DNA of 64,000 nt from Methanofervidicoccus abyssi (GTDB lineage: Archaea; AGJL01; Methanococci; Methanococcales; Methanococcaceae), in assembly GCF_004310395.1 (NCBI RefSeq), contig NZ_BFAX01000001.1, positions 62,001 to 126,000 on the forward strand, written 5' to 3'. Below, piece by piece: positions 114 to 52,869 of the stretch. Every line of letters begins with the position of its first letter. Positions within the stretch are counted from its first letter, which is position 1. Below the pieces are notes generated by a model. That model was not told the origin of the DNA. It ran no database searches and was given only the letters and a program-made list of their open reading frames with translations. Both the position numbers and the translations under genes were made by a program.

Positions 114-174
114 CGGTGTCAGTCCGCCCATCAATCATCACAGGTCAGAAGCTACCACCGATCATCATCCACCA
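114..174 (-). ncRNA. Box C/D guide sRNA (2'-O-methylation guide)
   Basis: Read on the minus strand, all four boxes occur in order with correct spacing: C box ATGATGA (168-162), D' box CTGA (148-145), C' box GTGATGA (141-135) and D box CTGA (122-119). GGTG before box C pairs with CACC after box D to close the terminal stem. The guide segments are 13 nt (161-149, upstream of D') and 12 nt (134-123, upstream of D). By the D+5 rule the predicted targets are the U of AAGCUACCACCGA and the first C after the G in UCCGCCCAUCAA. The segment is clearly GC-richer than the DNA around it and lies in the gap between mcm and the preceding gene. The rRNA or tRNA targets are not identified here. Confidence 0.88.
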
Positions 175-49926: not shown

Positions 49927-50013
49927 GCGGAGGTGGCCGAGCCTGGACTAAGGCGCCGGACTTGAAATCCGGTGGGGCTCTGCCCCGCAAGGGTTCAAAT
50001 CCCTTCCTCCGCG
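49927..50013 (+). tRNA. tRNA-Ser (anticodon UGA)
   Basis: An 87-nt tRNA with acceptor GCGGAGG/CCTCCGC and discriminator G. The anticodon stem CCGGA/TCCGG closes the loop CTTGAAA (anticodon TGA), and a long variable arm GGGGCTCTGCCCC precedes a T-arm with GGTTCAAATCC. The long variable arm and G73 are serine hallmarks. The 3' CCA is not encoded (CCT follows). It decodes UCN codons beginning UCA. A T-run (TTTTT) follows within a few bases as likely terminator. Confidence 0.97.
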
Positions 50014-50117: not shown

Positions 50118-52076
50118 ATGGGAGATGTAAAAACAGTTGCCTTAGCAGGTCAACCTAACGTTGGAAAGACAACGATATTCAACGAACTAACTGGAATGAC
50201 CCAGTGTGTAGGTAACTGGCCAGGTGTAACTGTAGAGAAGAAAGAAGGTTCAATGATTTATAAAGGGATGAAGTTCAACATAGTCGATCTACCAGGAACC
50301 TACTCTCTAAAAGCAGACTCCTTAGATCAGAAGATAGCAAGGGATTTCATAATTGAAAATAAAGATGCTATTATTGTAGATATAATAGACACAAACAACC
50401 TTAGTAGAAACCTCTACTTAACACTGCAGTTGATAGAACTTGGGAGATCACCGATAATATGTTTAAACTTCATAGATGAGGCGGAGAAGTATGGTATCTC
50501 AGTAGATGATAAGAAACTTAGTGATAGATTAGGAGGGCTTCCAGTTGTAAAAACTTCAGGTAGGTACAAGATAGGCATAGAAGATTTAAAGGAGACAATA
50601 CTAAATTACAAACCTATACCCTGTGAAATTAGATACTCTGAACTATTAGAGAATACCTTAGATAAGATCGTTGAAAAGTTGGAAAGATATTCCCTACCTA
50701 CAGATGAGAAGTTTAAAGGAGTTCCAAAAAGATGGCTAGCTATATCCTTCCTCGAGAGTGATCCTGAGGTTTTAGAGTTATTTAAGAAGAATGAAGATCT
50801 TTTAAAGGAGGTAAAGAAAATAAAAGAAGAGTTGGAAAGAGAGCTAAGACATGATACAGAGAGTTATGTTGCCGAGGAAAGATATAAAAAAGTAGATGAG
50901 ATACTGAAAGATATCTGGAAGGAGAACATAATATTCGATGATATAGACAAAATACTCCTTCACCCTGTCTACGGGATGATAATTTTTGCCATTGTTATGT
51001 ATGTAACCTATAGTGTTGTTATAGGGTTAGGTAATATATGCATAGAATACATTAAGACATTTTTTGAGTATTTAGGAGTGTATGCAAGTAGGATAGTTCC
51101 AGAACCATTCACAGGAGTTGTGGTGGATGGGATAATCAAGGGAGTAGGGTCAGTACTTATCTTTTTCCCATATATAGCCTTTATGATGTTTTCTCTAACT
51201 CTATTGGAGAATTTTGGATATCTAACTAGGGTTTCAGCTCTCTTCCATAAGATAATGGCCAGAATGGGCCTTAGTGGAAGTTCTACAATACCTATTATAG
51301 TGAGTTTTGGATGTAACGTCCCGGGTATAATGGCTACTAGGATAATTTCTGATACTCTTAGGCGAATTAGTACCCTCCTTGTACTACCTCTTGTCCCATG
51401 TGCTGCCAGGTTTGAAGTAATTACATTTATGGCTGCTACGTTCTTTGAAAAGCATGTTGCTTTATTTGCAATGGGAATAGTGAGTATAACTCTCATCCTC
51501 TTAAGTCTAGTATCTTACGTTATTGGTAAGTATATAGTAAAAGGTAAGCCTGAAGAACCTATCTTCGAACTACCTCCCTACAGATTACCAGATTGGAATT
51601 ATATTCTTAAAAGAACCTGGGTATATACAAAATACTTTCTAATAAAGGCAGGAACTGTGATATTGGCAGGTTCTATACTGTTCTATTACTTACTTTACTA
51701 TCCAAGTGAAGAGAACTGTTACGGTATGATAGTGGGAAAGATATTAGAACCTATAACTCAACTTATGGGGATAGATTGGAGAGGGGCACTTGCACTACTC
51801 TCTGGAATCATTGCCAAAGAGTTGGTAGTATCTACCATGACGATGGCTTACGGTGGAATTCCTAACATAGTTGAATCACTAACTCCACTACAGGCCTTTG
51901 TCTTTACCTTAGTTACTGTATTATACATTCCATGTTTAGCTACAATAGCAACTTTATTCCATGAAACAGGAAAGAGTGTAAAATGGACTTTATTTGCAGT
52001 AGGGTATAACTTGACATTGGCTACATTGGTAGGCATAGTGGTATATAACATTGGACAGCTCTTAGGCTTTGCATAA
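50118..52076 (+). CDS. feoB: Ferrous iron transporter FeoB
   Basis: Cytoplasmic-membrane Fe(II) transporter with a G-protein domain. The 652 residues begin with G1 GQPNVGKTT; the G3 element VDLPGTYSL and G4 NFIDEAEKYG follow. A helical spacer comes next, then about ten membrane helices with the conserved VSFGCNVPGIMATR (metal-site Cys) and VPCAARFEVI, and a second ICGAK-like block (SGIIAKELVVSTM). GGTGGTACA precedes the ATG. A functional feoA is expected next to it but only a decayed remnant follows at 52081. Confidence 0.96.
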   Translation: MGDVKTVALAGQPNVGKTTIFNELTGMTQCVGNWPGVTVEKKEGSMIYKGMKFNIVDLPGTYSLKADSLDQKIARDFIIENKDAIIVDIIDTNNLSRNLYLTLQLIELGRSPIICLNFIDEAEKYGISVDDKKLSDRLGGLPVVKTSGRYKIGIEDLKETILNYKPIPCEIRYSELLENTLDKIVEKLERYSLPTDEKFKGVPKRWLAISFLESDPEVLELFKKNEDLLKEVKKIKEELERELRHDTESYVAEERYKKVDEILKDIWKENIIFDDIDKILLHPVYGMIIFAIVMYVTYSVVIGLGNICIEYIKTFFEYLGVYASRIVPEPFTGVVVDGIIKGVGSVLIFFPYIAFMMFSLTLLENFGYLTRVSALFHKIMARMGLSGSSTIPIIVSFGCNVPGIMATRIISDTLRRISTLLVLPLVPCAARFEVITFMAATFFEKHVALFAMGIVSITLILLSLVSYVIGKYIVKGKPEEPIFELPPYRLPDWNYILKRTWVYTKYFLIKAGTVILAGSILFYYLLYYPSEENCYGMIVGKILEPITQLMGIDWRGALALLSGIIAKELVVSTMTMAYGGIPNIVESLTPLQAFVFTLVTVLYIPCLATIATLFHETGKSVKWTLFAVGYNLTLATLVGIVVYNIGQLLGFA

Positions 52077-52080
52077 AATA

Positions 52081-52260
52081 GGAGATGATACCTTATTAAA
52101 GAAATAAGGAGTGATATAAAAAACTCCATGATTTAGGTATTGTGCCTGGTACAAGAATAACTGTCATATCAAACGAGAAGAGAGAGATATAACGAGATCC
52201 ATAATTGTAGAGTAGAAGCTGTTTGACCTTCTTTACTCTATAAAAGATGAAATTTTCAAT
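52081..52260 (+). pseudogene. feoA: feoA remnant downstream of feoB
   Basis: One frame reads KKLHDLGIVPGTRITVIS, then NEKREI and a stop. This matches the FeoA core motif (L.LGI.PGT.I.VI). A preceding fragment GDDTLLKK lies in another frame, and a following fragment SIIVE, then SRSCLT, in further frames fits the usual C-terminal PIIVEV.GS..AL part. At least two stops and a frame change prevent a full SH3-like FeoA of about 75 residues. It starts only 5 bp after feoB, the usual operon position. Confidence 0.72.
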
Positions 52261-52869
52261 CTTAATACTATTTTATATAATTGTTGAAATACAGAACTTT
52301 TTTAAATTAAAATTACCAGGAAGACTCGATAAAATAATAATAAATCAGTACTCGTAAATAAAATAATTATTAAATAAAATAATTATATTAATTATAAAAA
52401 ATTAAACAAAAAAGATTAAAAAATAAAACCTTTTTATTCTAAAACATAATAATATATCTTCTCTACTTCTGAACATTGGAACGGAGGAACGGAGGGATTC
52501 TCTCTAATATCTTCTAACCATGTCTGTTGGAGATTCTCAATATCATGGGAATAATTTTTTATCATTATCCCAGTTTAGAAAACATCCCTCGGATAAGGAA
52601 TATGGTTAATTTTTTTACTTTATTATCATTATTTTATTAGTTGTTTTTAAGATCAAGGTTATAAAAATTAATATATAACCAAAAAATAAAAATTTTAAAA
52701 AATGTTAAATATTTAATTAGACGGTAAGAAGTTAAAATACAACCTTTACTCTTTAGACCACATTATAACACTTTTTATTTTTTTATTATTTTTTTATTTA
52801 TTATTTTATCGGGGATTTTTAATAGAAATATTTTTGGGTAATAACAATTATACAGTAAATAAATTCATT
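52261..52869. other. 609-bp AT-rich gene-free region with clustered hairpins
   Basis: After the feoA remnant there is a long A/T stretch. Then come a copy of the dispersed element (52463-52505, with a tandem GGAACGGA repeat at 52478-52493) and two further hairpins at 52509-52534 (ATCTTCTAAC / GTTGGAGAT) and 52546-52572 (TGGGAATAAT / ATTATCCCA). A T-rich tract (52772-52804) probably terminates mvk transcription. No coding frame. Confidence 0.65.
52463..52505 (+). repeat. Dispersed palindromic element, divergent copy
   Basis: CTACTTCTGAACATTGGA aligns with CTATACTGAGCACTGGA of the 36500-36546 copy, and the segment ends GGAGGGATTCTC. Confidence 0.4.

What the first reader, a model, noticed from the sequence alone, without database searches (positions are those of the whole stretch)
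52081..52260. Decayed feoA directly behind an intact feoB
The FeoA core LHDLGIVPGTRITVIS is legible but interrupted by stops and frame changes, 5 bp after feoB. Loss of feoA suggests FeoB functions alone here or with another FeoA in the genome.
Basis: partly seen in the sequence, partly recalled or inferred. Interest (0 to 1): 0.5.

Follow-up and report, generated by a model that had tools for sequence, protein, structure and literature searches.

The report
Decayed feoA behind working feoB
A methane-producing archaeon has lost the small iron-uptake gene feoA beside its intact ferrous-iron transporter gene feoB, while one intact feoA survives elsewhere in its genome and probably does the job; it looks like an ordinary gene loss after duplication.

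Summary
Window 52080-52215, just behind an intact feoB (50118-52076), is a feoA remnant. Five same-genus relatives carry an intact feoA downstream of feoB. Against the best match, G028, the window copy shows net losses of 34, 1 and 43 nt, each breaking the frame, so a sequencing error is unlikely. The remnant ends at 52215, not 52260.

FeoB looks functional: full length, over the family cut-off, dN/dS about 0.1. A profile search finds one intact FeoA in the 99.67% complete genome, on another contig behind VIT1-family and DUF2115 genes; five relatives keep it too. Where both copies exist, the feoB-linked one tends to diverge faster (1 of 3 comparisons significant). Likeliest reading: a redundant copy was lost and the distant FeoA serves FeoB. 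This is untested; FeoB working alone is not excluded. Split feoA/feoB (Helicobacter pylori) and FeoB-only methanogens are published.

In passing: a lineage-specific dispersed intergenic repeat lies about 240 nt downstream (at least 34 matches in this genome).

The parts
50118..52076 (+). intact feoB, 652 aa
   Evidence: TIGR00437 feoB equivalog 516.4 bits, cut-off 315.65; PF02421, PF07670, PF17910 and PF07664 over cut-off; dN/dS about 0.1
52080..52215 (+). feoA remnant (pseudogene), same place as the intact feoA downstream of feoB in G028, G032, G025, G030 and G026
52124..52171 (+). legible FeoA core LHDLGIVPGTRITVIS
   Evidence: PF04023 20.4 bits over 52103-52171
52087..52094 (+). first lesion: 8 nt between anchors where G028 has 42 (net loss 34); FeoA N-terminal part gone; the ATG left at 52085 opens 4 codons
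52095..52179 (+). central block, one nt shorter than in G028; 72 of 85 nt identical to G028 allowing one gap
52180..52200 (+). third lesion: 21 nt between anchors where G028 has 64 (net loss 43)
49927..50013 (+). tRNA gene upstream of feoB
   Evidence: Rfam RF00005 58.9 bits
52452..52598 (+). copy of a dispersed intergenic repeat family (not part of feoA)

Best explanation
Part of this genus holds two FeoA genes: one next to feoB, and one alone in a TIGR00267(VIT1-family)-DUF2115-FeoA-glycosyltransferase cluster. In this genome the feoB-linked copy became dispensable and decayed through several deletions. FeoB stays functional and most likely uses the distant FeoA, made in trans as a small partner of its G domain. 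Shown here: the decay, an intact FeoB under purifying selection, and a single profile-detectable intact FeoA elsewhere in a setting shared with relatives. Inferred: that the two copies were redundant, and that the distant FeoA serves FeoB.
For: Intact feoA lies next downstream of feoB in 5 relatives, G028, G032, G025, G030 and G026, and next upstream in 3 more of the genus, G022, G023 and G029. The remnant scores 108 against G028's feoB-linked feoA but 38.5 against the genome's own second feoA, so it is not a fresh copy of that gene. Net losses of 34, 1 and 43 nt each break the frame. FeoB: G000-G028 dN 0.083, dS 0.659; distance to G030 is dN 0.172 for G000, 0.170 for G028 and 0.163 for G032. 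One intact FeoA in the genome at E <= 0.001: C2:94779-94949, 41.2 bits (41.7 bits). The same gene order, judged by ORF similarity, is seen in G028, G024, G027 and G032; in G025 the DUF2115-FeoA adjacency follows from coordinates. Where both copies exist the linked FeoA differs more than the distant one: G028-G032 20/67 against 7/67 residues, Fisher p 0.009; G028-G025 19/67 against 10/67, p 0.09; G032-G025 7/68 against 3/70, p 0.20 (counts taken from the identities). In G030-G026, where no second FeoA was found, the linked copy is not faster than FeoB (5/70 against 72/645, p 0.42).
Against: No interaction, expression or transport data. Only one of three rate comparisons is significant, and the three share branches. 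The linked FeoA of the relatives is still constrained (G028-G032 dN 0.175, dS 1.869; G032-G025 0.053, 0.308), so it is not simply useless there. FeoB distances to G032 and G025 are slightly larger from G000 (dN 0.105, 0.104) than from G028 (0.091, 0.092), so a small acceleration is not ruled out. No FeoB was found in G024, which keeps the distant FeoA; but its contig C48 ends inside the tRNA that precedes feoB in the window, so this may be an assembly gap. FeoA trees are weakly supported at depth.
Confidence: 0.72

Rival explanations
1. FeoB works alone in this organism; the remaining distant FeoA serves another partner or function, for example the nearby VIT1-family protein.
For: Johnson et al. 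(PMC8351635, passages read) report 59 methanogen/methanotroph genomes, 21 of them complete, with FeoB but no FeoA. The H. pylori paper states that in some species FeoB suffices without FeoA or FeoC (PMC10353542 section 3.1). The distant FeoA sits two genes behind a VIT1-family gene (PF01988 60.6 bits, TIGR00267 203.1 bits). No FeoB was found in G024, which keeps this FeoA.
Against: The G024 absence may be an assembly gap. In 8 of 8 other genomes of the genus with a whole or nearly whole feoB an intact feoA lies beside it. The Johnson survey used BLASTp with a Methanosarcina query and may have missed short divergent FeoA (inference).
Confidence: 0.2
2. The broken frame is a sequencing or assembly error in an intact feoA.
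For: One of the three lesions is a single nucleotide, and only one assembly of this genome could be read.
Against: Two further net losses of 34 and 43 nt, with the N-terminal coding part gone; assembly 99.67% complete, 0.04% contamination; feoB next to it is one open frame.
Confidence: 0.04
3. The remnant keeps a non-protein or short-peptide function.
For: The central block is still identical to G028 at 72 of 85 nt.
Against: The core frame has 25 codons and no ATG. Rfam has no match here at the gathering threshold. The similarity is what a recent loss would leave (inference).
Confidence: 0.04

Closest known systems
Split Feo system of Helicobacter pylori (PMC10353542; abstract and section 3.1 read)
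   Same: feoB and a functional feoA lie at distant loci; feoA sits beside unrelated genes
   Different: Here an archaeon, with a decayed feoA still visible behind feoB and a distant copy that relatives hold in addition to the linked one; the requirement for FeoA, shown in H. pylori, is untested here
FeoB-only methanogens (PMC8351635; abstract and passages read)
   Same: Methanogen with feoB and no intact feoA beside it
   Different: Here the profile search finds one intact FeoA elsewhere, so the genome is not FeoB-only
feoA-feoB neighbours of Methanococcales (FeoA match in 35 of 36 genomes; a match to the FeoB query in 36 of 36, in G024 and G031 to its GTPase part only)
   Same: Intact FeoB, feoA adjacent by ancestry
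   Different: The adjacent feoA is a pseudogene in this one of the 6 same-genus genomes with feoA downstream of feoB that could be read

Membership tests
FeoB (TIGR00437) | Full-length match over the curated cut-off | tested here: met
   516.4 bits against 315.65, profile 1-594 of 594
FeoB (TIGR00437) | Fe2+ transport | not testable with these tools
   no assay
FeoA (PF04023), remnant 52080-52215 | Profile score over the gathering cut-off | tested here: not met
   20.4 bits against 23, profile positions 21-43 of 74
FeoA (PF04023), remnant 52080-52215 | One open frame with start codon | tested here: not met
   stops in all three frames; three frame-breaking net losses
feoA pseudogene | Intact ortholog at the same place in relatives | tested here: met
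   5 of 8 same-genus relatives with a readable feoB have it downstream; the other 3 have it upstream
FeoA (PF04023), distant copy C2:94779-94949 | Profile score over cut-off, open frame | tested here: met
   41.2 and 41.7 bits, 71 aa open frame; no NCBIfam match at E <= 0.001
Split Feo system (H. pylori type) | Distant feoA required for FeoB function | not testable with these tools
   needs deletion or complementation

The most novel reading that the evidence does not exclude
The surviving FeoA is not a FeoB partner but a partner or regulator of another iron protein (for example the VIT1-family protein encoded two genes away), and FeoB in this lineage has become FeoA-independent.
Probability: 0.12. 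Interest if true: 0.5.

Novelty: new member of a known kind. Interest (0 to 1): 0.22.

Why it matters
It looks like a step in the splitting of a feoA-feoB pair in archaea: the genus has genomes with both FeoA copies, genomes in which only the linked copy was found, and now one with only the distant copy intact. That gives a natural test of whether FeoB needs FeoA, and which one. It also shows that a genome without feoA beside feoB should not be scored as FeoB-only without a profile search of the whole genome.

Tried and rejected
Sequencing error: judged unlikely because of three separate lesions; no reads or second isolate could be examined.

Remnant as a fresh duplicate of the distant FeoA: rejected, DNA score 38.5 against 108 to G028's linked feoA.

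Does the sister genome G027 share the decay? Not answerable. Its feoB is cut at a contig edge (C226:1-660), and contig C54, next to mevalonate kinase, starts past the remnant.

Is G024 a genome with FeoA but no FeoB? Not answerable; its contig C48 ends inside the tRNA that precedes feoB in the window.

FeoA trees: 24 of the 30 proteins were used; one of the two trees added the remnant core. Dropped: G023_c1, G023_c2, G018_120, G020_C1, G021_C1 and G019_C1. The other-family (f2) FeoA and some further copies listed were not used. With the remnant, the linked FeoA of G028, G032, G025, G030, G026 and G022 group with it (80/93); without it the deep fork has 40/85. The order of duplication is left open.

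Does the downstream repeat explain the decay? No evidence: it begins about 240 nt after the remnant, and G027 has a copy in the same gap. Repeat as structured RNA: fold z-scores -0.42 to -2.61 in the 7 copies folded; consensus fold of 7 pairs with 0 compensatory changes in 17 copies. That alignment held 17 of the 25 distinct copies extracted (29 rows, 4 of them the same place twice); dropped: L156, L160, L169, L172, L080, L175, L158 and L170.

One search failed on a file name; the same work was done. No structure prediction was run.

Full report
Observation. feoB is open from 50118 to 52076 and scores 516.4 bits to TIGR00437 (cut-off 315.65), with four FeoB-type Pfam domains over their cut-offs. 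Three bases further on, 52080-52215 aligns to feoA. The three forward frames carry 3, 4 and 5 stops, one of them the old feoA stop. PF04023 reaches 20.4 bits there, below its cut-off of 23. The stretch 52216-52260 is not part of it.

Relatives. Twelve genomes of the genus, this one included, were searched. Intact feoA lies next downstream of feoB in G028, G032, G025, G030 and G026 (about 40 to 490 bases between the matched stretches) and next upstream in G022, G023 and G029 (about 130 to 360 bases). G025's feoB lacks its first 59 codons at a contig end. G027's feoB is cut after 220 codons by a contig end; G024 and G031 gave only matches to the GTPase part. The window therefore comes from a relative of Methanothermococcus; the order Methanococcales and a finer name (Methanofervidicoccus-like) are recalled, not tested.

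The lesions. Against G028, 8 nt stand where G028 has 42 (N-terminal part), the central stretch is 74 nt between anchors against 75, and 21 nt stand where G028 has 64. Each loss breaks the frame. The DNA score to G028 is 108; the highest of 1000 dinucleotide shuffles is 53.5. The remnant scores 62.5-108 against the five relatives' feoA downstream of feoB, 31.5-46 against the three upstream feoA, and 18-38.5 against the six distant copies. It is therefore the old downstream feoA.

FeoB is still under selection. Nei-Gojobori dN/dS is about 0.13 (0.083/0.659) against G028, and about 0.10 (0.035/0.364) over the 220 codons available in G027. Distances to the outlying G030 are alike (dN 0.172 for G000, 0.170 for G028, 0.163 for G032), as are those to G026 (0.186, 0.195, 0.180). 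Distances to G032 and G025 are slightly larger from G000 (0.105, 0.104) than from G028 (0.091, 0.092). There is no clear acceleration.

The other FeoA. The 1,308,147-base genome (5 contigs, 99.67% complete) has one intact FeoA at E <= 0.001, at C2:94779-94949, 71 aa. Upstream lie a TIGR00267/VIT1-family gene and a DUF2115 gene, downstream a family 2 glycosyltransferase. The same order, by ORF similarity, was read in G028, G024, G027 and G032, and the DUF2115-FeoA adjacency in G025 follows from coordinates. So 6 of 12 genomes of the genus hold the distant copy. In G022, G023, G026, G030 and G031 the DUF2115 gene was found (in all but G026 with the VIT1-type gene beside it), and the profile search found no FeoA there. 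The ORF list starts at 80 aa and cannot show this by itself. In G029 the DUF2115 gene lies about 170 bases from a contig end and cannot be judged.

Why the linked copy went. In genomes holding both, the linked FeoA has changed more than the distant one: 20/67 against 7/67 residues in G028-G032 (p 0.009), 19/67 against 10/67 in G028-G025 (p 0.09), and 7/68 against 3/70 in G032-G025 (p 0.20). In G030-G026, with no second copy found (genomes 89% and 81% complete), the linked FeoA is no faster than FeoB (p 0.42). The three comparisons share branches, and the linked copy is still constrained in those relatives (dN well below dS), so this is a trend, not proof. It fits a weaker constraint on a partly redundant copy that was finally lost here.

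Function. In Bacteroides fragilis FeoA, an SH3-like protein, stabilises GTP-bound FeoB (PMC8980893, abstract). In Helicobacter pylori feoA and feoB are at distant loci and both are needed; the same text says that FeoB suffices in some other species (PMC10353542, abstract and section 3.1). In Shewanella oneidensis neither gene alone supports uptake (PMC8749426, passages). By analogy the distant FeoA most likely serves FeoB here (about 0.7). FeoB alone remains possible: 59 FeoB-only methanogen/methanotroph genomes, 21 of them complete, have been reported (PMC8351635, passages), though that survey used BLASTp with one query species.

Literature check. Searches for FeoA with FeoB and pseudogene (15 of 21 papers listed), with FeoB and methanogen (17 of 17), with paralog and archaea (15 of 43), with FeoB generally (15 of 335), for stand-alone, orphan or second FeoA (6 of 6) and for Methanofervidicoccus (5 of 5) listed no paper on this case by title and start of abstract. 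The library is open-access only. PMC8417812, on Methanothermococcus single-cell genomes, has 0 occurrences of 'feo' in its main text and one general mention of iron transport proteins.

A side finding. About 240 nt past the remnant lies a copy of a dispersed intergenic repeat. A sequence model built from 17 copies (3 from this genome, 14 from G027) gives 34 matches here at E <= 0.001, 74 in G027, 66 in G028, 2 in G026, 2 in G030 and 0 in the other 32 of 37 genomes; only 89 candidates per genome were scored, so the counts are lower bounds. It shows no compensatory base changes. Its nature is unknown.

Verdict. A pseudogene, most likely an ordinary loss after duplication, useful mainly as a natural experiment on FeoA dependence.

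Noticed in passing
window 52452-52598 (+); also G000:C2:170690-170824, C2:96303-96441, C3:4428-4558 and others: Dispersed intergenic repeat of about 120-147 nt. A sequence model from 17 copies matches 34 places in this genome at E <= 0.001, 74 in G027, 66 in G028, 2 in G026, 2 in G030 and 0 in the other 32 of 37 genomes; 89 candidates per genome were scored, so these are lower bounds. Many weaker G028 matches are shorter (about 95 nt) and may be a related family. It has a short imperfect inverted pair near the ends, no compensatory changes and no Rfam match in the window at the gathering threshold. Nature unknown; a small non-autonomous mobile element is a guess.
   Followed up: partly
L143 67-185 (G027:C54): The sister genome has a copy of the same repeat in the same gap before mevalonate kinase, so the insertion probably predates their split.
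   Followed up: partly
G000:C2:93497-94952 (L072 1498-2953): A FeoA lies behind a VIT1-family (TIGR00267) gene and a DUF2115 gene, a possible iron-related cluster.
   Followed up: partly
feoB-linked FeoA of G028 (L063), G032 (L064) and G025 (L065): These three have Arg where the window remnant, G030 and G026 have Gly in the LGIVPG motif.
   Followed up: no
window 117-172 (-): Match to the archaeal C/D-box RNA sR2, 45.8 bits against a gathering score of 42.
   Followed up: no
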